Below, in pieces: positions 7,825 through 55,421 of a DNA stretch of 64,000 bases; position 1 is the stretch's first letter, and every line of letters starts with the position of its first letter. Origin of the DNA: Lachnospiraceae bacterium. Lineage in GTDB: Bacteria; Bacteroidota; Bacteroidia; Bacteroidales; Muribaculaceae. Location of the stretch: positions 1-64,000 of the forward strand of contig JAMPGZ010000011.1 of assembly GCA_023663655.1 (NCBI GenBank), read 5' to 3'. The notes under the pieces are model-generated. The model was not told the origin of the DNA, searched no databases, and saw only the letters and a program-made list of their open reading frames with translations. The position numbers and the translations under genes are program-made.

Positions 7825-7828
7825 CTAC

Positions 7829-7907
7829 AAAAAAAAATTATTTGTCTCACGACAAATAATCTTCTTAACCTTAAATCTAATACCATGAAAAACACGATGC
7901 AAAGTTA
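7829..7907 (-). ncRNA. Promoter-leader-terminator element upstream of argS
   Basis: Minus strand: -7 box TAACTTTG (7907-7900), a 31-base core (7895-7865), then a perfect 10-bp stem ATTATTTGTC/GACAAATAAT (7860-7837) with a 4-base loop and a run of nine T. The predicted RNA is about 65 nt. The 31-base core is identical to the one upstream of era (55379-55409), where the hairpin has a different sequence. It may be a free small RNA or a transcription attenuator of argS. The gap 7759-8056 holds only this element, the box at 7817 and the terminator at 7972. Confidence 0.7.
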
Positions 7908-25578: not shown

Positions 25579-25749
25579 TTTTGACCCGCAGAAGATTCCG
25601 CCACTCCCATTTTAACCGGCAAAAACACGCCCCGCCGAGAATCCAAATCCGTCGCGGCTACCTCAACCACACCTGCAAAATCACCTGCAAGATTGGAGCT
25701 ATTATTAATGGATATAAATGTAAATCGGTTGATTTATTGATTGTTATGA

Positions 25750-25780
25750 TTGCTAATCTGGATAATTTTTATTAAATTTG
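25750..25780 (+). promoter_or_regulatory. RhuM-Fic gene promoter
   Basis: TTG (25750-25752), 20 bases, TAAATTTG (25773-25780). The box ends only 3 bases before the ATG at 25784, so the mRNA would be leaderless or nearly so. Confidence 0.65.
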
Positions 25781-25783
25781 CGT

Positions 25784-26791
25784 ATGGAAAATCAAATCGA
25801 ACCGATCAGCAGCGTCGTCATCTATCAGACCAACGATGGTGAAACAGCCATTGATGTAAAGTTTCAGGATGAAACCGTATGGCTGTCGCAGACACAGATG
25901 GCAGAACTATTTCAAAAGGATAGGACTGTCATAGGACGCCACATAGGTAACATTTTCAAGGAGGGAGAATTGGAAGAATCCTTGGTTAGTGCAAAATTTG
26001 CACATGCCAAGGAATACGGTCGTAGAGAGGGATTTACGCAGCGAACAGAAACAACTCTCTACAACCTTGATGTAATCATATCAGTTGGTTATCGTGTCAA
26101 ATCAAAACGTGGAACTCAGTTCCGTATCTGGGCTAACAAAGTTTTGAAACAATATCTGCTTAAAGGCTATGCCGTCAACGAGCGCCTCGCCTCGCAGAAA
26201 TATGATGAACTGAGCCAATTGGTTAAAGTGCTTGGGCGAACCATTCAGAATCAGGAGAAACTGACAGAGGACAGCCGCTCTCTACTTGATGTGGTTGTGG
26301 ATTACACGTATGCTCTTGACACTCTCGACCGTTACGACTATCAGGAACTGACTATTGAGGAGACAACGAAAAAAGAAGAATTCCACGCCACATACGAAAA
26401 TGCTATGGAGGTTATTCGCGAACTTCATGAGAAGTTTGGCGGCAGCACGCTGTTTGGTAATGAGAAAGACGATTCTTTCAAAAGCTCTATCGGTCAGATA
26501 TATCAGACTTTCGGTGGAATTGACCTATATCCTTCAGTGGAAGAAAAAGCAGCCATGCTTCTTTACCTCGTTACGAAAAATCATTCATTCAGTGATGGTA
26601 ATAAACGCATTGCCGCTACTCTGTTCTTGTGGTTCCTCAATGGTAACGGCATTCTCTACAATGAGGATGGTGCCAAGCGCATCGCCGATAACACCCTTGT
26701 GGCACTTACCCTCATGATAGCCGAAAGCCGCACCGAGGAGAAAGACACAATGGTGAAGGTCATCGTCAACCTTATAAACAAGAACAACTGA
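25784..26791 (+). CDS. RhuM-Fic/Doc fusion protein
   Basis: A 335-residue protein. The N-terminal RhuM (virulence protein) domain covers about 10-180: VVIYQTNDGETAIDVKFQDETVWLSQTQMAELF, described in pieces VIYQ, VKFQDETVWLSQ and RTVIGRHI, plus NLDVIISVGYRV. The C-terminal Fic/Doc domain covers about 215-335 with the active-site motif HSFSDGNKRIA. The lysine after N is as in Doc-type kinases (DxNK) rather than AMPylating Fic (GNGR), and the second arginine is absent. This suggests transfer of a phosphate or nucleotide to a target protein. The ATG at 25784 is preferred to the TTG at 25778. No separate antitoxin gene is adjacent, so the RhuM half may be regulatory. Confidence 0.88.
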   Translation: MENQIEPISSVVIYQTNDGETAIDVKFQDETVWLSQTQMAELFQKDRTVIGRHIGNIFKEGELEESLVSAKFAHAKEYGRREGFTQRTETTLYNLDVIISVGYRVKSKRGTQFRIWANKVLKQYLLKGYAVNERLASQKYDELSQLVKVLGRTIQNQEKLTEDSRSLLDVVVDYTYALDTLDRYDYQELTIEETTKKEEFHATYENAMEVIRELHEKFGGSTLFGNEKDDSFKSSIGQIYQTFGGIDLYPSVEEKAAMLLYLVTKNHSFSDGNKRIAATLFLWFLNGNGILYNEDGAKRIADNTLVALTLMIAESRTEEKDTMVKVIVNLINKNN

Positions 26792-26799
26792 TTGTCTTC

Positions 26800-26832
26800 T
26801 TGCCATCCTTTTTCGCGGTGGCAATTTTTTTT
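26800..26832 (+). terminator. Terminator of RhuM-Fic gene
   Basis: TTGCCA/TGGCAA with an inner CC/GG, followed by eight T. It lies 8 bases after the stop codon. Confidence 0.85.
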
Positions 26833-26906
26833 CAGTGTCCTGGTGTAACTCGGGTATATACTACCCGACCTAACCCAATCTTGTATTGCTATATAATTGG
26901 ATATAA

Positions 26907-26936
26907 CAATGGCTGAACCGCTACGTCCAGCCATTG
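26907..26936 (-). terminator. Hairpin after the Ig-like repeat gene
   Basis: Perfect 9-bp stem CAATGGCTG/CAGCCATTG, 28 bases past the stop codon at 26964. The T-run on the minus strand is weak. Confidence 0.5.
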
Positions 26937-26963
26937 CATTTACCGCTCTATGTATATTTCATT

Positions 26964-29900
26964 TTATTTGATAATTCGCTTGATACGACCACCTTGTGAT
27001 ATGATTATGTATGTGCCCAATACAAGATTTGATTCCGAGTATACACCTTCATAAACAAGGACTCCATGGAGATTGTAGATTCTTACATATTGATTGTCGT
27101 CAATCTCAATGTCATTGATGCCAGCGCCTTCATCAACGACAACGGCGCATATGCCTGATATTCCTGAACCATCGGTAGCGGACACTTTTATTATTGCATT
27201 GCCTTTGGTATGCAACGAAATTAGCCCTTCTGAATCAACGGAGGCTACTTTCGGATTGTCGCTTGACCATGCTAATGTTGTATCAGAAGCATTTTTGGGC
27301 GTAATTGTGGCTGTCAACTGGTAGGTCTCGCCGATGTTGCCAGTGACAGTAGACGGGTCTATTGTTATGGAAGAAATCAATACCGTAGGCTCGAATACTT
27401 CAACATTACATGTCCCAGATAAATTAGAGCCATCTTGCGAAGACGCAACAATTGTTGCCGTGCCAATTCCTTTTGCGGATAATTGACCATTTGAATCTAC
27501 TATAACCACAGATGGATTTGTTGAGGACCAGTTAATATTTTTATTTGTCGCATCGACAGGCGTGATTTGTGCGTCCAAATTGAATGTTTCATCAACTGCC
27601 AATCTGACAGAGGATGGGTTGATTGAAATTTGATTGATAGGAACGAAGTTATCGTTAACCAATATTTCACAAATGGCAGATAGATTGCTACCATCTGTCG
27701 TTGATACTATAATAAGTGCGGAACCCTTTTTAATAGCAGACACGATTCCATCGGGAGATACTACAGCCACACTTGTATCTGAGCTTTCCCAATTCACGGT
27801 TTTATCAGAAGTATTATCGGGAATGACGGTTGCTTCTAATTGGAAAGATTTGTTCTCTTCCAATTCTAAAGATTCTACATTTAACGATACCCTAGTGGCT
27901 AATTGAACCACGGTGACCTTGCAAGAATTACTAACTTTAGGATTGTCAACTGAATAGGCATGTATATCAGCTGCACCTTCCTTTTTGGCATAGATACATC
28001 CTTTTTCATCAACTGTAACGACGTCGCGATTATTTGATTCCCATAAAACCGATTTGTTATCTGCATTGTCAGGTAAAATAGTTGCGTTTAGGCTAAAATA
28101 ATCTCCAATACATAGTTTTGTATTATTTTCAGAAATTAAAATTTCCTCTACTGGTTGCATCACGCGAATATTGCATTTTGCAATTATGTGACCACAAGAT
28201 GCTTCAATAATCGCATTACCCGGAGATATAGGATAAACCAGTCCTGTATCGGTTACTTTCGCAACTGTTTCATCACTACTATGCCATTGTATATTTGACA
28301 CATCGGCTTCTATTGGAAGTGCATGCCAATTAAGCTGATATGGCTCAGTTATCTTTAATTTTAAATTATTTTCTTCTATAGCAATTTGTTGAAGTTTAGG
28401 TTTTTTTACTCTGACTTCACACAAGGCGGGCAGTCCAGTTTGTCCGCTAACACGTAGATGTGCTTCTCCCTCAGAAAGGGCTGTAATGTAAGCCCAGGTT
28501 TTATCCCCATCGGCACCTGCATTAACTTCTACTACTTCAGGATTATCATTTGACCATTCTATATTAGAGACCGTAGCATTTGATGGTAATACAAATGGGC
28601 ATATAAGTTCTGTTTCTCCCAATGTCAATGTAACTATGTCCCAATTAAAATATAAGCGTTGTATATCGGTAGGTTTTACTATAATTTTACAAGAATCAGA
28701 CAAGTTCGAACTGGGAGAATATGCAATTACTGTTGCTTCCCCTACTTTTAAAGCAGAGATACAACCATCTTGTGAAATCTCAATTATTCCGTCATTATCT
28801 TTTGTAGACCATTCTATGTCTTTGTAGGTAGCATTGTGAGGTAATATACTAACATTTAGAAGTTTGCTCTCTCCTTTTTCCATATACACAAATTTATTTG
28901 TAAATGTCACACTTTCCACCTTTTGGGGTGCTACACTCACAATGAGACTTTTTTCCAAACCCGATAATGTTTTTGCTGTAATCTTTGTTTCTCCTGGTGC
29001 GAAAGCATGCACAATTCTGACAGAATCTATTATCGCTATTTCGATATTTTCATTTCTCCATTTTATTGTGTCGTTTGAATCCTCAGGATATAATTTTGTT
29101 AGCAACTTCAGAGAATCTCCGGCTATTATAGAAATTGTTGATAATGGTGCATTTGTTTCTGCTTCAAAAATTTCAATATCTGATGCAGGTTTTACAACAG
29201 TTAGCTCAAATTTATCAATATCTCCATTCCAATGGGTCGCCGATATAACAACGGTGCCTTTTTTTATTCCTTTAAGACATCCGTTTTCATCCACTGTTGC
29301 AACTGATGTATCTGATGATTCAAAGCTAAAAAATTGATTTGATATAGGTCTAAAGTTTCTATTGCCTATATATTCCATCATTGCCAATGTGACACTCTGA
29401 TTTTCCATTATAATCTTGGGAGTATCGTAATCAAAGCAAAATATTATATAAGCATCTGATTCAGCTAATATTTTTTTGAAATTTTTCCAGCCTGTTGAGT
29501 TCTGATAATTAGCTTTTGATCCATCTGGAACCCATAGCGTGGCGGTTTCATACGCTTCTTGACTAAATGTATTATTATAGGCAGATGGTGCAGAAGGATT
29601 CTTACATACAATCTTAGCCCCCTTCATATCTGAAAAAGCTCCGCTTCCAATAGAAGAAATGGATTTTTCAATATTTAATGTAGCTATTTTACTGCAACCC
29701 TTAAATGCATTAGCGTGTATCTTAGTAGAACCTCGGGTAATGGTATTATCATGCCCTACCGTAACGTATTTTACCCCAGACGAATGAAAACCTATAATAT
29801 CAGTGATTGTCTTACCGGTTGCAAATAGATAATCACAACAATCTCCATATGATGTTGATGCATCCAATGCATCAACGGTATACCATAATCCATTGACAGA

Positions 29901-30107
29901 AAAATCTCCGCCATTACAGTACCACGTTTCCCCATATCTAGAGATTTCTCTACCCGTTTCGGTTGCCTTACCACCCATCGTTACACCGGAAGAAGACGAA
30001 TTTCGTAGTGTGTAATTATAACCATTTCTAGTATAGGCGTAACTTTGGAAACTGATAGTGACTACCGCTGTAATCACAGTAATCAAAGCAAATAATAGTT
30101 TTTTCAT
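26964..30107 (-). CDS. Secreted Ig-like (BIG2) repeat protein with LRR-type N-terminus
   Basis: A 1047-residue protein with a signal peptide (first 24 residues). A BspA-like leucine-rich region lies at about 110-215 (IHANAFKGCSKIATLNIEKSISSIGSGAF, seen as two short repeats). About nine bacterial Ig-like group 2 domains follow from about 230 to 985, recognisable by repeated SSDTSVA/VD-x-G-x-I-x-A-x-x-x-G and TATITP motifs. The C-terminal 60 residues resemble a type A sorting tail (GTYIIIS, KRIIK). It is probably a surface adhesin or binding protein. It looks A+T-richer than the flanking core genes, in keeping with transfer. Confidence 0.85.
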   Translation of the reverse strand: MKKLLFALITVITAVVTISFQSYAYTRNGYNYTLRNSSSSGVTMGGKATETGREISRYGETWYCNGGDFSVNGLWYTVDALDASTSYGDCCDYLFATGKTITDIIGFHSSGVKYVTVGHDNTITRGSTKIHANAFKGCSKIATLNIEKSISSIGSGAFSDMKGAKIVCKNPSAPSAYNNTFSQEAYETATLWVPDGSKANYQNSTGWKNFKKILAESDAYIIFCFDYDTPKIIMENQSVTLAMMEYIGNRNFRPISNQFFSFESSDTSVATVDENGCLKGIKKGTVVISATHWNGDIDKFELTVVKPASDIEIFEAETNAPLSTISIIAGDSLKLLTKLYPEDSNDTIKWRNENIEIAIIDSVRIVHAFAPGETKITAKTLSGLEKSLIVSVAPQKVESVTFTNKFVYMEKGESKLLNVSILPHNATYKDIEWSTKDNDGIIEISQDGCISALKVGEATVIAYSPSSNLSDSCKIIVKPTDIQRLYFNWDIVTLTLGETELICPFVLPSNATVSNIEWSNDNPEVVEVNAGADGDKTWAYITALSEGEAHLRVSGQTGLPALCEVRVKKPKLQQIAIEENNLKLKITEPYQLNWHALPIEADVSNIQWHSSDETVAKVTDTGLVYPISPGNAIIEASCGHIIAKCNIRVMQPVEEILISENNTKLCIGDYFSLNATILPDNADNKSVLWESNNRDVVTVDEKGCIYAKKEGAADIHAYSVDNPKVSNSCKVTVVQLATRVSLNVESLELEENKSFQLEATVIPDNTSDKTVNWESSDTSVAVVSPDGIVSAIKKGSALIIVSTTDGSNLSAICEILVNDNFVPINQISINPSSVRLAVDETFNLDAQITPVDATNKNINWSSTNPSVVIVDSNGQLSAKGIGTATIVASSQDGSNLSGTCNVEVFEPTVLISSITIDPSTVTGNIGETYQLTATITPKNASDTTLAWSSDNPKVASVDSEGLISLHTKGNAIIKVSATDGSGISGICAVVVDEGAGINDIEIDDNQYVRIYNLHGVLVYEGVYSESNLVLGTYIIISQGGRIKRIIK

Positions 30108-30236
30108 ATTTCAAATTTTATCAATAATCGAAGCTTGGTCTTAAAAAACAATTATTTAAAATACGGGTTAAACATTGTACATAATCGGATAATACACTAT
30201 GCATAGTATGATTAGGTGCAACATATGATTGGGAAG

Positions 30237-30671
30237 TCATTTATTCGTATATATTGTTTTGATTAGCTTTTCAAGTTCATATATTTTCTTATATAAATCA
30301 CTTTTCTCTTTCACTAGCCAATCTTTCAAAACTTCCAAATGTTTGGTTTCCTCATAAACCCATTGTTCATGAAGAAGACTGGAATGTCCCGTTGCATCAT
30401 TCCGTAAGATATTTGATATTCCACCAAGAAGAAGTATTGTTAAATTTAACAATCGTTTTGGTGGGATATCTTCTCCTCTAGCCCATTTTGAATCTGCTGA
30501 TGTTTTGCGAAAAACTTTTAACGAAATAGTTTCGTTATCAAATTGAGACAATCCCAATGAAAGATATTTAACATCATCACTCTCTTCGGGATCTGTGTTC
30601 TCACAAGCCAAAATAGGCTTATGCTGCAATGTGTGAGGGATGTCCTTTATAGGATAAATTCCATTATTCAT
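30237..30671 (-). CDS. Unknown 144-residue protein behind structured RNA
   Basis: I do not recognise the family with confidence; the pattern KPILACENTD, LSLGLSQFDN, SLKVFRK, SKWARGEDIPPKRLLNLTILL may be an uncharacterised DUF. No signal peptide or membrane segment is visible, and the C-terminus is a charged helix (LKDWLVKEKSDLYKKIYELEKL). The start at 30671 lies 57 bases after the end of the structured RNA at 30729-31048, with no promoter box in between, so the gene is probably read from the RNA's promoter. It is A+T-rich, like the Ig-like repeat gene that follows on the same strand. Confidence 0.6.
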   Translation of the reverse strand: MNNGIYPIKDIPHTLQHKPILACENTDPEESDDVKYLSLGLSQFDNETISLKVFRKTSADSKWARGEDIPPKRLLNLTILLLGGISNILRNDATGHSSLLHEQWVYEETKHLEVLKDWLVKEKSDLYKKIYELEKLIKTIYTNK

Positions 30672-30728
30672 ATTATGATCGTCGGCCGCGGTCTTCCCCT
30701 CGTTGGCGACTGATTGGGTTATACGAGA

Positions 30729-31048
30729 AAGCGTAGGAATCTGTATCTGTCACCGTCCTACTCTCCGAGGCTTCTCGCATTGCCCTATTGATGTCAGACG
30801 GCAACGCAGAAGCCCACGCTTGTATATGTAACAATAGCGTCCGGCTGTACCTTTCCCAAGGCGCTTTGCCGAATGCATGATATTACATATCCACGGGCAT
30901 CTACCGTTGCTCAGTCCTTGACATCAATATGAATTTTGCGAGAATTCCGAAGAGTCAAGAATCAGCGCGGATAAACGCTTTCTATTATGTTCACTGCATC
31001 CCGCCTCGCTTTACCCCAAACCGGGCCTCTGCGATGCGGTCTACGCTT
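30729..31048 (-). ncRNA. Large structured RNA, identity unknown
   Basis: About 320 nt on the minus strand, starting at the predicted transcription start of a consensus promoter. Its ends pair (8 bp: 31048-31041 with 30736-30729). Internal helices: 31037-31033/31000-30996 (5 bp); 30959-30954/30922-30917 (6 bp) closing a hairpin 30947-30943/30935-30931; 30890-30883/30831-30824 (8 bp) enclosing a CCTT-GGGA-AAGG GNRA hairpin (30861-30850); and a 15-bp helix 30814-30800/30784-30769 with one bulge. The loop of that last helix (30795-30786) is complementary over 10 bases to 30929-30920, a pseudoknot. RNase P, tmRNA and SRP signatures were not found. The stretch 30672-31292 has no other gene. Confidence 0.65.
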
Positions 31049-31049
31049 G

Positions 31050-31080
31050 CAAAAATAGCAACAAATTTTCAAAATTACAA
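31050..31080 (-). promoter_or_regulatory. Promoter of the structured RNA
   Basis: Minus strand TTG (31080-31078), 20 bases, TATTTTTG (31057-31050). The predicted start (about 31047) coincides with the 5' strand of the closing helix. Confidence 0.7.
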
Positions 31081-31086
31081 TATTTA

Positions 31087-31118
31087 GCTCAAAATGTGAA
31101 TGTTAAAAAACCGCAGAG
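31087..31118. repeat. 32-bp direct repeat, left copy
   Basis: Begins GCTCAAAATGTGAATG. It matches 31960-31991 at 30 of 32 positions (first 23 identical). The two copies bracket the MntA/HepT module. Confidence 0.85.
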
Positions 31119-31292
31119 GGAGGTAAGTGCCGTTAGGCATGAGTGAGCATATATTCCGGCGATGGTGAAACAAATCGGGAGCATGATGATGCCGGTTAAA
31201 CGGTTTCACGGCTCATTTTCAAACGATTTTCAGGCTTAGAGTGTTTCTTTATCAGGAATATTCCCTATATTCGCACTTAGAAACAATGTCTT

Positions 31293-31598
31293 ATGAAATT
31301 GATCGAACTCAACCTGCAATGCATTATTGATCTTTGCCGTCGGCATAAGGTCAAATCGCTCGCTGTCTTTGGCTCTATTCTGACGGATAGATTTAACGAC
31401 CAAAGCGATGTGGATCTGCTTGTGGATTTTGAGCCTACAGATCCTGATAAATTTGATTACGTCACTAATTTCTTTGACTTACAGGATTCTTTAGAATCAC
31501 TTCTGAAAAGAAAAGTTGATCTGGTAGTTGGCAGCAGTTTGAGAAACAAATACTTTATTAATAACGTGAACCGGACAAAGCAAGTGATATATGGATGA
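31293..31598 (+). CDS. mntA: MntA-type nucleotidyltransferase antitoxin
   Basis: A 101-residue minimal nucleotidyltransferase. The motif GS-x10-D-x-D is exact (GSILTDRFNDQSDVD), with a further acidic residue in VDLVVG. In the MntA/HepT system the antitoxin attaches AMP units to the HEPN toxin's active-site tyrosine and blocks it. It overlaps hepT by 8 bases. The start is the first ATG after the upstream repeat and precedes the conserved region by the usual distance. Confidence 0.88.
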   Translation: MKLIELNLQCIIDLCRRHKVKSLAVFGSILTDRFNDQSDVDLLVDFEPTDPDKFDYVTNFFDLQDSLESLLKRKVDLVVGSSLRNKYFINNVNRTKQVIYG

Positions 31599-31941
31599 GA
31601 GCATTCTTAAATATCTTGAAGATGTGCGGATGGCGTGTGATGACGTTGAGCAGTTCTTTGTCGATTATCCCAATCGCTTTGACGTGTTTACCAATGACCG
31701 CCTGATGATTCGTGCCGTTGAGCACTCGGTGGAGATAATGGGTGAAGCTATAAACCGAAAACTGAAAAGGTATCCTGGTTTCAGCCTTCCAAATGCAAGG
31801 GCGATAGTGCAAACTCGCAATAGAGTTATTCACTCATACGAAAAAGTAGAGAGTGAATTTCTGTGGGGATTGGTGAAGCGCCACATTCCCGAACTTAAAA
31901 AAGACGTTGAACACATTCTTGCCGAATATGAGAAGCAATAG
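31591..31941 (+). CDS. hepT: HepT-type HEPN ribonuclease toxin
   Basis: A 116-residue HEPN (DUF86) protein. The RX4HXY catalytic motif is present as RNRVIHSY near residue 80, with VFTNDRLMIRAVEHSVEIMGEA upstream typical of the family. HepT is a ribonuclease (reported to cut tRNA in one system) that MntA inactivates by AMPylating the motif's tyrosine. The order antitoxin-toxin and the 8-base overlap fit the MntA/HepT family. The whole module lies between 32-bp direct repeats. Confidence 0.9.
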   Translation: MDESILKYLEDVRMACDDVEQFFVDYPNRFDVFTNDRLMIRAVEHSVEIMGEAINRKLKRYPGFSLPNARAIVQTRNRVIHSYEKVESEFLWGLVKRHIPELKKDVEHILAEYEKQ

Positions 31942-31959
31942 TACAATCGGTAGAAGCCG

Positions 31960-31991
31960 GCTCAAAATGTGAATGTTAAAAAGCCGCTGAG
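31960..31991. repeat. 32-bp direct repeat, right copy
   Basis: Partner of 31087-31118. In this copy CGGCT (31958-31962) and AGCCG (31982-31986) can pair, so it may also act as a hairpin after hepT. Confidence 0.85.
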
Positions 31992-32000
31992 AACGGTTGA

Positions 32001-32024
32001 CACACGATGCCCGGGCATCGTGTG
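32001..32024. other. Perfect 24-bp palindrome
   Basis: CACACGATGCCC followed at once by its exact reverse complement. It lies between the convergent ends of hepT and the GT39 gene, 9 bases after the right 32-bp repeat. With no loop and no T-run it is not a standard terminator; it could be a recombinase or regulator site, or a cruciform-forming terminator. Confidence 0.75.
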
Positions 32025-32041
32025 CCAAATAATGCCTAATG

Positions 32042-33736
32042 TTATTTCTTGGGGGTGAACTTGAGTAGGAGCACTTGGCGGCGCAGGTCGCAACTGCGGG
32101 TGCGGAAATGCTTCAGTAGGTAGAAGTCGTATTTTGAGGCATTTTCGGGCAGGTATGTTTTGCCGTCGTCCACGGTGATGATCATGTAGCCGGAGTCGCC
32201 CTCAGGTGCGGTGGCGATGCTCTTTAGGCGGTCGTCAAGGTAGTAGTTCACGCCGTAGAAGCGGGTGTTGTAGTCCGCGGTGTAGGCATAGAGGTTTCCT
32301 TCGGGTTGCAGTTCGGTGAGAGCGGCCGCTATGCGTTTGTCGCTCTTGGTGTTGAGCACTGTCGGCTGGTAGACTCCGGCAAAAGCCCAGTAGAGTGTGA
32401 CAGTCACGGCAATGCACCATCCGAGAGCGCTGTAGCCCGACATACGGCGAAGTTTTATGAAAAATATAATCGCCAATACAACCGGTATTTCGGCTATTAT
32501 CCACTTGATAAAAGAGAAATGCTGTGATAGCGCAGTGACGTAAAGCGCGTTTTCAAGTGCGTGTTTTCCGGAGAGGCGACTATAGGGGAAATCTCCGCAT
32601 TGCAGGAACAGGAACACCCCGAAAAGCAGTATCGCCGCCACGCATATTACGGATGAATATACCTTGACCACGCGTTTTGACACATTGGCAAGATACTGGA
32701 TGTAGCCGGCGATGAAAAATGCCGTGAACGGATACATGGGCAGCAGATACACGCTGCGCTTACTTGCCGGAATGCAATAAAACAGGAAGATAGCCAAGGC
32801 AGCGACAATCGACAGCATGGTCACAGGCTCAAGCCGGAGGAACGACTTGATGAAGCCGTCGGCAGGCTTGTGAAACCGGTAGTGACGGAACACCACCGCC
32901 AGTGAAAACAATAGCAGCAATGTGTAGGGGAGGAATCCCGCTACGAGTGTCATCACATTGTAGTGCCACGGATTGACGTGCGATTCATAGCTCATGTTGC
33001 CGGTCATGCGTCCCACGTTTTCCTCCATCATGAGTTCGCGGAATTGTTCTCCGCCCTGTTGGAATGCGGCGGCATACCATGCCGCCGGTATCAGGCACGA
33101 GACGATGCCCCACAATGTGAGCAGCCCGAGAACTTTCCAGAAGCGTTCACCACGCAACAGCATGAACAGCCCCATCACGCCACACGGCAGAGCCACGCCC
33201 ACCGGACCTTTGGTGAGAAATGCTCCGGTCATCATGAGTATCGCCACTAAGGGTATTCCTTTCAATCCACGTTCCCAATAGGCATACAAGGAGTAGATGG
33301 CTCCCACAGTGAACAGGGTGAGCAGCATATCCACGCGGCAGGCAAATCCCGCACGATACACCTCAAATGAAGTGAGCAGCAGGAAAGCCGTCAACAGTGC
33401 TCTTCCTTTGCCGGCACGTTTCACATAGAACATGAAAGTCCACATCACCAGTGCTATCAACGCGATTGCCGACGGGAGGCGCGACGTGTATTCAGTCACG
33501 TGTCCCCACGGAAGCGACACCGCTGCTATGCACCAAGCCATGAACGGCGGCTTGTAGGGAATCATGTCGCCGTTGCTTATCGGTAGGATCCAGTTGCCTG
33601 ATTGCAGCATTGAGACAGCTACGATAGCCTCGCGTGGTTCACCTTTGGAGTAAAAAAGCGCTTCGCCCAAAAATGGCAGCAGGGTGAGCGAGGAGATGAT
33701 CAGTAGCAGAAGAAAAGCATATTTGGTTTTCATCAT
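32042..33736 (-). CDS. ArnT/PMT-like glycosyltransferase (GT39/GT83 type)
   Basis: A 564-residue integral membrane protein with about 12 hydrophobic segments. The first periplasmic loop has GEPREAIVAVSMLQSGNWILP and PYKPPF, the metal/lipid-donor region of ArnT and PMT family transferases that move a sugar from a polyprenyl phosphate to lipid A or protein. The substrate is not predictable. The start is set at the MMKTK pair (33736) because a consensus promoter ends 27 bases upstream; the longer frame to 33826 would include that promoter. Divergent from the GH106 gene. Confidence 0.85.
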   Translation of the reverse strand: MMKTKYAFLLLLIISSLTLLPFLGEALFYSKGEPREAIVAVSMLQSGNWILPISNGDMIPYKPPFMAWCIAAVSLPWGHVTEYTSRLPSAIALIALVMWTFMFYVKRAGKGRALLTAFLLLTSFEVYRAGFACRVDMLLTLFTVGAIYSLYAYWERGLKGIPLVAILMMTGAFLTKGPVGVALPCGVMGLFMLLRGERFWKVLGLLTLWGIVSCLIPAAWYAAAFQQGGEQFRELMMEENVGRMTGNMSYESHVNPWHYNVMTLVAGFLPYTLLLLFSLAVVFRHYRFHKPADGFIKSFLRLEPVTMLSIVAALAIFLFYCIPASKRSVYLLPMYPFTAFFIAGYIQYLANVSKRVVKVYSSVICVAAILLFGVFLFLQCGDFPYSRLSGKHALENALYVTALSQHFSFIKWIIAEIPVVLAIIFFIKLRRMSGYSALGWCIAVTVTLYWAFAGVYQPTVLNTKSDKRIAAALTELQPEGNLYAYTADYNTRFYGVNYYLDDRLKSIATAPEGDSGYMIITVDDGKTYLPENASKYDFYLLKHFRTRSCDLRRQVLLLKFTPKK

Positions 33737-55335: not shown

Positions 55336-55421
55336 CATAAAATTACTACGGGCGAGTCTCCCGACCCACCCGTAATAATTAACCTTAAATCTAATACCAT
55401 GAAAAACACAGTGCAAATATA
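55336..55421 (-). ncRNA. Promoter-leader-terminator element upstream of era
   Basis: Minus strand: -7 box TATATTTG (55421-55414), the 31-base core (55409-55379) identical to the argS copy, then a hairpin with 12 pairs between 55380-55369 and 55352-55341 (one U-G) plus an inner GGGTC-GGGA-GACTC, followed by TTTT. Predicted RNA about 75 nt. The hairpin sequence differs completely from the argS copy while the core and layout are the same, which argues for conserved function rather than recent duplication alone. Confidence 0.7.

What the first reader, a model, noticed from the sequence alone, without database searches (positions are those of the whole stretch)
30729..31048. Unidentified structured RNA of about 320 nt with closing helix and pseudoknot
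The gene-free stretch on the minus strand has a consensus promoter (TTG-20-TATTTTTG) whose predicted start sits on the first bases of an 8-bp helix that pairs with bases about 310 nt downstream. Inside are an 8-bp helix with a GNRA-capped hairpin, a 15-bp helix, and a 10-base perfect complement between that helix's loop (30795-30786) and upstream bases 30929-30920. Such a set of nested and pseudoknotted pairs is not expected by chance and points to a functional RNA. The hallmark sequences of RNase P RNA, tmRNA, SRP RNA and group I/II introns were looked for and not seen. I cannot rule out that it is a known Rfam family or a common Bacteroidales repeat.
Basis: partly seen in the sequence, partly recalled or inferred. 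Interest (0 to 1): 0.82.

Follow-up and report, generated by a model that had tools for sequence, protein, structure and literature searches.

The report
Leader RNA with hypervariable paired loops
This is one of about a dozen copies in the genome of an apparently undescribed ~320-base RNA leader that sits in front of many different, mostly surface or secreted, protein genes across gut Bacteroidales, and each copy carries two short matching sequence tags that pair with each other but change almost completely from copy to copy.

Summary
The structured RNA is real and matches no Rfam family. It is a repeated 5' leader: 11 copies in this genome, present in 186 of 225 Muribaculaceae genomes and in other Bacteroidales. 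It has a conserved Bacteroidota promoter (191/208 copies) and ends in a terminator-like hairpin with U-run, about 55 nt before a start codon. The operons differ: many surface proteins, often BspA-type LRR; here DUF6530 plus a Big_2 protein.

Covariation supports hairpins H1 and H2 with complementary loops, and a terminator sharing bases with the H2 stem, so I favour transcription attenuation (inferred).

The surprise is two loop helices, V1 and V2: correctly paired in about 95% of copies, yet saturated with change even when the rest of the core is <6% diverged. In one pair with 98% identical downstream DNA all four V segments are replaced together. They look like copy-specific codes; whether they insulate paralogues was tested and is unproven.

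The parts
31050..31080 (-). Bacteroidota promoter: -33 TTG (31080-31078), 20-nt spacer, -7 box TATTTTTG (31057-31050); start expected near 31047-31044
   Evidence: sequence; box in 191/208 copies vs 4% of control windows, box plus TTG in 130 vs 0.8%
30729..31048 (-). leader RNA body
   Evidence: homologues in 42/99 relatives; R1 model: 11 copies in this genome, 186/225 family genomes; z-score -7.45
30964..30979 (-). P1 small hairpin AGCG:CGCU; its loop bases 30973-30970 pair with 30744-30747 (PK2)
   Evidence: P1 92-100% and PK2 95-98% paired in 214 copies, 30971:30746 U-A/C-G
30916..30960 (-). hairpin H1: stem 30960-30954:30916-30922, loop = V2a (30953-30949), mid arm (30944-30937), V1a (30929-30923)
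   Evidence: stem 94-100% paired with compensatory changes
30825..30889 (-). apical arm: helix AUAUG:CAUAU and hairpin 30864-30858:30847-30853 with GNRA-like loop
   Evidence: helices 7 and 8
30749..30805 (-). hairpin H2: stem P3 30805-30796:30749-30758, loop = V1b (30786-30792), mid arm (30772-30779), V2b (30762-30766)
   Evidence: P3 pairs mostly 97-100% with compensatory changes; helix 9 100% of cells, 6 of 10 pairs changed on both sides
30923..30929 (-). V1a, hypervariable; pairs with V1b 30786-30792
   Evidence: V1 >=6 bp in 96% of copies vs 12% after swapping loops; saturated divergence
30786..30792 (-). V1b, hypervariable partner of V1a
30949..30953 (-). V2a, hypervariable; pairs with V2b 30762-30766
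   Evidence: V2 >=5 bp in 95% of copies vs 8.5% after swapping; top mutual-information pairs
30762..30766 (-). V2b, hypervariable partner of V2a
30725..30761 (-). terminator-like hairpin 30761-30756:30733-30738 plus U-run (UUUCUC here, longer in most copies); shares 30756-30758 with the H2 stem
   Evidence: 79-95% paired, 30759:30735 A-U 127 / G-C 53; mean 5.9 U in 8 nt; stem >=6 bp in 66% vs 13% of shuffles
30685..30707 (-). second conserved mini-hairpin GCC...GGC just before the start codon
   Evidence: 14% diverged where its flanks are 47-55% diverged
30237..30671 (-). first gene of the operon, DUF6530 protein (144 aa)
   Evidence: Pfam PF20140 E 4.9e-12
26964..30107 (-). second gene, 1047-aa Big_2 / LRR_5 protein
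   Evidence: Pfam Big_2 E 8.9e-90, 9 stretches; LRR_5 E 2e-07

Best explanation
The RNA is a cis-acting 5' leader of a large Bacteroidales family. Transcription starts at its own promoter near 31047. The nascent RNA folds hairpin H1, then hairpin H2, whose loops are complementary to each other through the V2, mid and V1 helices. The H2 stem, held by the H1-H2 loop pairing, occupies bases that would otherwise form the terminator hairpin before the U-run. If loop pairing and H2 hold, RNA polymerase reads through into the operon; if not, it stops and releases a ~320-nt RNA. A mini-hairpin just before the start codon may add translational control. V1 and V2 must match within one RNA but differ between copies, so they act as copy-specific codes. 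Shown: leader position, promoter, helices, overlap of terminator and H2 stem, hypervariability. Inferred: termination itself, the direction of control, and the role of the codes. The trigger is unknown; I favour an RNA or a protein acting on the loop-loop complex over a metabolite, because the downstream genes share no pathway.
For: Co-directional ATG ORF >=100 aa 30-110 nt after the U-run in 132/166 copies vs 8% (divergent strand) and 24% (random positions). Promoter in 191/208. Unbiased covariation finds V2, V1, mid, P3, PK2, terminator pair; fixed-register counts; 97.8% of cells paired and 28/58 pairs changed on both sides, 0/500 shuffles as high. Terminator and H2 stem share 30756-30758 and both covary. 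Terminator-like stem plus U-run. Same architecture in other Bacteroidales families.
Against: The terminator stem is short and weak in this copy (-7.8 kcal/mol, U-run interrupted), and about a third of copies lack a perfect 6-bp stem by the simple rule. At 30757 the H2 pairing is kept at the cost of the terminator pair in 39 copies. No expression data. Geometry of about 20 bp between two closed hairpin loops is demanding, so H1/H2 stems and loop pairing may alternate rather than coexist.
Confidence: 0.62

Rival explanations
1. Barcoded trans regulator: the terminated ~320-nt RNA acts in trans on nascent copies of the same leader (H1 loop of one molecule with H2 loop of another), giving locus-specific feedback. 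V1/V2 diversify so that paralogous leaders in one cell do not cross-talk, as in plasmid incompatibility RNAs.
For: V1/V2 replaced in concert in near-identical leaders; no pair of distinct leaders in one genome shares both codes (0/708); 11-18 leaders per genome.
Against: Within-genome sharing of single codes (V1 6 vs 8.2 expected, V2 5 vs 7.1) is not significantly low (one search agrees). No trans effect shown; cis pairing explains complementarity.
Confidence: 0.25
2. V1/V2 are only structural spacers: any sequence will do if it pairs, and mutation plus compensation (perhaps helped by template switching) randomises them without selection for difference.
For: G-U intermediates exist in V helices (e.g. 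L102, L106, L109); template switching can cause concerted multibase compensatory change (PMC8794818).
Against: V differs completely where the downstream DNA is 88-98% identical (5 of 6 pairs) and the apical hairpin 0-6% different. The arms lie about 130-190 nt apart, far for template switching. V alleles recur far above chance (TCAATA 20/214).
Confidence: 0.3
3. Translational rather than transcriptional leader: the mini-hairpin near the start codon is the output and the U-run is incidental.
For: A conserved mini-hairpin 10-15 nt before the start codon; weak terminator in this copy.
Against: U-run and terminator pairs are conserved and compete with the H2 stem.
Confidence: 0.2
4. Free-standing trans-acting sRNA gene that merely lies upstream of genes.
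For: It has its own promoter and a terminator-like end.
Against: Co-directional start codon at a fixed distance and a second conserved element between U-run and start codon.
Confidence: 0.06
5. Guide RNA or end structure of a mobile element, with V1/V2 derived from the target site.
For: Leader plus operon is found in different genomic contexts, and this copy lies in an accessory insertion.
Against: No recombinase or nuclease family is among the commonest downstream families; V segments are not enriched in flanks; V differs in a pair whose upstream context is 92.5% identical (L131/L162).
Confidence: 0.03

Closest known systems
Transcription-attenuation leaders and terminator-type riboswitches (general class)
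   Same: 5' leader with its own promoter, structured domain, terminator-like hairpin and U-run that share bases with another conserved helix
   Different: No Rfam match; no common pathway downstream; two hypervariable self-complementary loop helices; up to 18 copies per genome
Plasmid copy-control RNAs with loop specificity (I-complex RNAI / stem-loop I; PMC10724649, read; that paper's reference list also names the pT181 countertranscript attenuator and the ColIb-P9 repZ pseudoknot)
   Same: Complementary loops whose few bases set which related RNAs can interact; loop pairing as a molecular switch
   Different: Chromosomal, many copies, both loops lie in one RNA, no antisense gene seen, no replication gene downstream
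FopS paralogous sRNAs (RF04319)
   Same: Multi-copy Bacteroidetes RNA in the same genome
   Different: About 71-nt sRNA without similarity to this element; found at 7828-7895 and 55336-55409

Membership tests
Any Rfam 15 family | covariance-model score above the curated threshold | tested here: not met
   window and 19 distant homologous loci at gathering score, this stretch at E 10; one sub-threshold DUF805b match in L319 lies outside the leader
Transcription attenuator leader | between a promoter and the start codon of the regulated gene | tested here: met
Transcription attenuator leader | intrinsic terminator (stem plus U-run) | tested here: met
   66% of family and 76% of order-level copies vs 13% of shuffles; weak in this copy
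Transcription attenuator leader | alternative helix mutually exclusive with the terminator | tested here: met
   H2 stem and terminator share 30756-30758, both with compensatory changes
Transcription attenuator leader | signal-dependent read-through | not testable with these tools
   needs RNA-seq or in vitro transcription
Metabolite riboswitch | conserved aptamer and functionally coherent downstream genes | tested here: inconclusive
   conserved core exists, but 64 Pfam families were seen in 116 downstream proteins; ligand binding untested
Plasmid antisense copy-control RNA | antisense transcript of the target loop and a replication gene | tested here: not met
   no replication gene among the commonest downstream families; no match in 72,556 plasmids; an antisense transcript was not tested
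Transposon guide RNA (IS110 bridge RNA, omega RNA) | adjacent recombinase or nuclease and a guide matching the insertion site | tested here: not met
   no such family among the commonest downstream Pfam families; V1/V2 not enriched in flanks

The most novel reading that the evidence does not exclude
A chromosomal, order-wide system of barcoded leader RNAs: each operon's leader carries a private two-part loop code, its terminated RNA regulates only leaders with the same code, and diversifying selection keeps about a dozen such circuits per cell insulated. It would be a natural set of orthogonal RNA switches controlling surface and secreted proteins of gut Bacteroidales.
Probability: 0.25. Interest if true: 0.92.

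Novelty: new variant of a known kind. Interest (0 to 1): 0.8.

Why it matters
It adds a large and widespread RNA leader class (up to 18 copies per genome, most Muribaculaceae genomes sampled) in front of much accessory surface and secreted protein coding capacity in common gut bacteria, and gives those poorly understood genes a common regulatory handle. The hypervariable yet matching loops are a striking case where compensatory change outruns everything around it. This makes directly testable whether RNA loops can act as private codes on a chromosome, and how complementary segments far apart are replaced in concert.

Tried and rejected
Known RNA families: cmscan of the window, of this stretch at E 10, and of distant homologues gave nothing at the leader. 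Guide RNA of a mobile element: V segments not enriched in flanks; no phage, plasmid or viral-contig match. Closing helix: not conserved. The 15-bp helix and a GCAACG:CGUUGC alternative: arms conserved but little covariation. Trans RNAs carrying only an H2 loop in this genome: a pattern search with up to 3 mismatches found two leaders and one isolated 3-mismatch hit (G000:C22:9417), not followed up. Avoidance of shared codes within a genome: suggestive, not significant. Outside Bacteroidales: no match in a phylum-wide sample of 296 genomes other than this genome. Literature searches found no description of this leader; supplementary tables, e.g. of PMC8040213, could not be read, so an unnamed entry there cannot be excluded. 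No protein structure was predicted, as the question concerns RNA.

Full report
What was checked first. The 320-nt stretch folds much better than shuffled sequence on the minus strand (-134.4 vs -95.3 kcal/mol, z -7.45; the plus strand less so, -110.6, z -5.3). cmscan of the window finds only two FopS sRNAs elsewhere and nothing at 30600-31320 even at E 10. The named inverted repeats exist.

It is a family. blastn against the window's own genome gives 9 matches. A covariance model of the 5' core (R1) finds 11 copies there. In the family, 186 of 225 genomes and 24 of 26 genera match, up to 18 copies per genome. In a sample of the order, 43 of 295 genomes match, most of them outside this family. 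A phylum-wide sample gives no match besides the window's genome. Named loci from an exact-pattern scan include Duncaniella, Muribaculum, Paramuribaculum, Heminiphilus faecis AM35 and 'Barnesiella' sp. WM24, beside many unnamed or oddly labelled metagenome bins. No match in phages, plasmids or viral contigs (the viral scan was an exact pattern).

It is a leader. In 191 of 208 copies with enough upstream sequence TAnnTTTG lies 30-150 nt before the core, against 4% of control windows; in 130 of these TTG lies 17-22 nt further upstream, mostly 19-20. That TAnnTTTG with TTG about 20 nt upstream is the Bacteroidota promoter is my background knowledge. In 132 of 166 copies a co-directional ATG ORF of at least 100 aa starts 30-110 nt after the U-run (peak 50-60 nt), against 8% on the divergent strand and 24% at random positions. 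Between U-run and start codon there is a second conserved mini-hairpin, less diverged than its flanks in close pairs (14% against 47% and 55%). The genes differ from copy to copy. Of 116 first or second downstream proteins 27 carry BspA-type LRR_5, 5 PEGA, 3 Big_2, 2 each OMP_b-brl, BACON and Por_Secre_tail; 64 Pfam families were seen. By a simple hydrophobicity rule about 58% of first and 77% of second ORFs look secreted or lipoprotein-like (a rough rule, not a signal-peptide predictor). In the window the operon is DUF6530 plus a 1047-aa Big_2 protein.

Structure. An unbiased mutual-information scan of 214 distinct copies, mapped to window coordinates, gives V2 (30953-30949:30762-30766) as the strongest pairs, then V1 (30929-30923:30786-30792) and mid (30944-30938:30772-30778), and also P3 (30797:30757), a pseudoknot contact (30971:30746), a terminator pair (30759:30735) and the apical hairpin; other column pairs in the list do not form helices. 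Counts in fixed register: H1 stem 94-100% paired; V2 93-98%, most positions with all four Watson-Crick types; mid 98-100%; P3 mostly 97-100%; terminator 79-95%; P1 92-100% and PK2 95-98%. V1 reads 60-98% there because its length varies and the alignment slips. The count on the 25-copy alignment gives 97.8% of cells paired, 28 of 58 pairs with changes on both sides and covariation score 0.358, with 0 of 500 shuffles as high and collapse on sliding by one column. The 15-bp helix has conserved arms but little covariation.

Attenuator logic. The terminator stem GUAGGA:UCCUAC uses 30756-30758, which the H2 stem also uses. Both are supported: 30759:30735 is A-U in 127 and G-C in 53 copies, 30797:30757 is C-G in 136, U-A in 42 and U-G in 31. 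U content after the stem averages 5.9 of 8. Stems of at least 6 bp directly before the U-run occur in 66% of family and 76% of order-level copies, against 13% of shuffles. In distant copies the terminator can be long, e.g. GCGUGGAA...UUCCACGC and nine U in L319. In the window copy it is weak (-7.8 kcal/mol, U-run UUUCUC). That the structure controls termination, and in which direction, is inference.

Hypervariable codes. Copy by copy, V1 pairs over 6 bp or more in 96% and V2 over 5 bp or more in 95% of 102 copies; swapping loops between copies drops this to 12% and 8.5%. A joint search finds V1, V2 and mid helices in nearly all of 111 copies from eight genomes (it takes the best match in a region, so its weak hits are not evidence alone). 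For pairs whose body without V differs by 3-6%, V1 and V2 differ at about 60%, the apical hairpin at 10%, mid at 0%. Promoter flank, linker and post-hairpin sequence are also saturated in that bin, because such pairs are mostly paralogues in different places; the fair comparison is with pairs whose downstream DNA is homologous. Six pairs have 88-98% identical downstream DNA over at least 400 nt, and V1 and V2 both differ in five of them. The clearest, L073/L164, is 98.3% identical over 1236 nt downstream and identical in the apical hairpin, yet all four V segments are replaced and still complementary. In the one group with V unchanged (L099/L100/L159) the upstream DNA is 98% identical. V alleles recur far above chance: V1 TCAATA in 20 of 214, the combination TGTTG+TTCTCT in 8. 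Two copies (L177, L098) have mismatched V arms, perhaps assembly chimeras.

What the codes are for. Avoidance of shared codes within a genome was tested. No pair of distinct leaders shares both codes (0 of 708), but single-code sharing (V1 6 vs 8.2 expected, V2 5 vs 7.1) is not significantly low (an earlier label-permutation test agrees). So insulation between paralogues is a hypothesis. Template switching can produce concerted multibase compensatory changes in stems (PMC8794818), but that study required source and target close together, whereas here the arms lie about 130-190 nt apart. Plasmid copy-control RNAs show that single loop bases can set compatibility between related RNAs (PMC10724649).

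Context. Three congeners have carB and the PMT_2 gene about 90 nt apart, while the window has 6.5 kb between them (about 25583-32050) with a Fic/RhuM protein, the leader operon and an MNT/HepT-like pair. So this leader operon is accessory. Homologous downstream DNA is usually found without detected homologous upstream DNA (some loci lack upstream sequence), consistent with movement of leader plus operon as a unit.

Limits. Most genomes are metagenome-assembled; leaders are repeats and often lie at contig ends. V pairing also holds in assemblies labelled as isolates (L093, L109, L131). There are no expression data, no ligand and no partner protein. The literature searched is open-access only, and supplementary tables could not be read.

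Noticed in passing
window 25583-32050: A 6.5-kb accessory insertion between carB and a PMT_2 gene; three congeners (L337, L338, L339) show the empty site with the two genes about 90 nt apart. It carries a Fic/RhuM protein, the leader operon and an MNT/HepT-like pair.
   Followed up: partly
window 25778-26791 (+): Fic/RhuM fusion protein matching PADLOC candidate defence model PDC-S23 at E 5.8e-143.
   Followed up: no
window 31293-31941 (+): Nucleotidyltransferase (MNT-like) and HepT-like pair, a probable toxin-antitoxin module, divergent from the leader.
   Followed up: no
window 7828-7895 and 55336-55409 (-): Two FopS paralogous sRNAs (Rfam RF04319).
   Followed up: no
L086: Two leaders in tandem 340 nt apart with different V1/V2 codes.
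   Followed up: no
L005 about 1187-1569 (G000 contig C17): Shortened or degenerate leader-like copy that keeps the 3' end and mini-hairpin before a lipoprotein gene.
   Followed up: no
L041 and L042 (G000 contigs C19 and C42): Two identical leaders in one genome before different operons, a recent duplication with the same codes; a natural test case for cross-talk.
   Followed up: no
L320 (G471, 10 weak hits): Compact relatives in another Bacteroidales family that appear to lack the long H2 stem but keep V2, mid and V1 helices (read by eye).
   Followed up: no
L319 908-943 (-): Sub-threshold DUF805b RNA match (28.4 bits, gathering score 35.6) just before a small ORF with a GG-type leader-peptide motif, outside the leader itself.
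   Followed up: partly
G000:C22:9417-9435 (+): Isolated 3-mismatch match to the H2-loop core not at a known leader.
   Followed up: no
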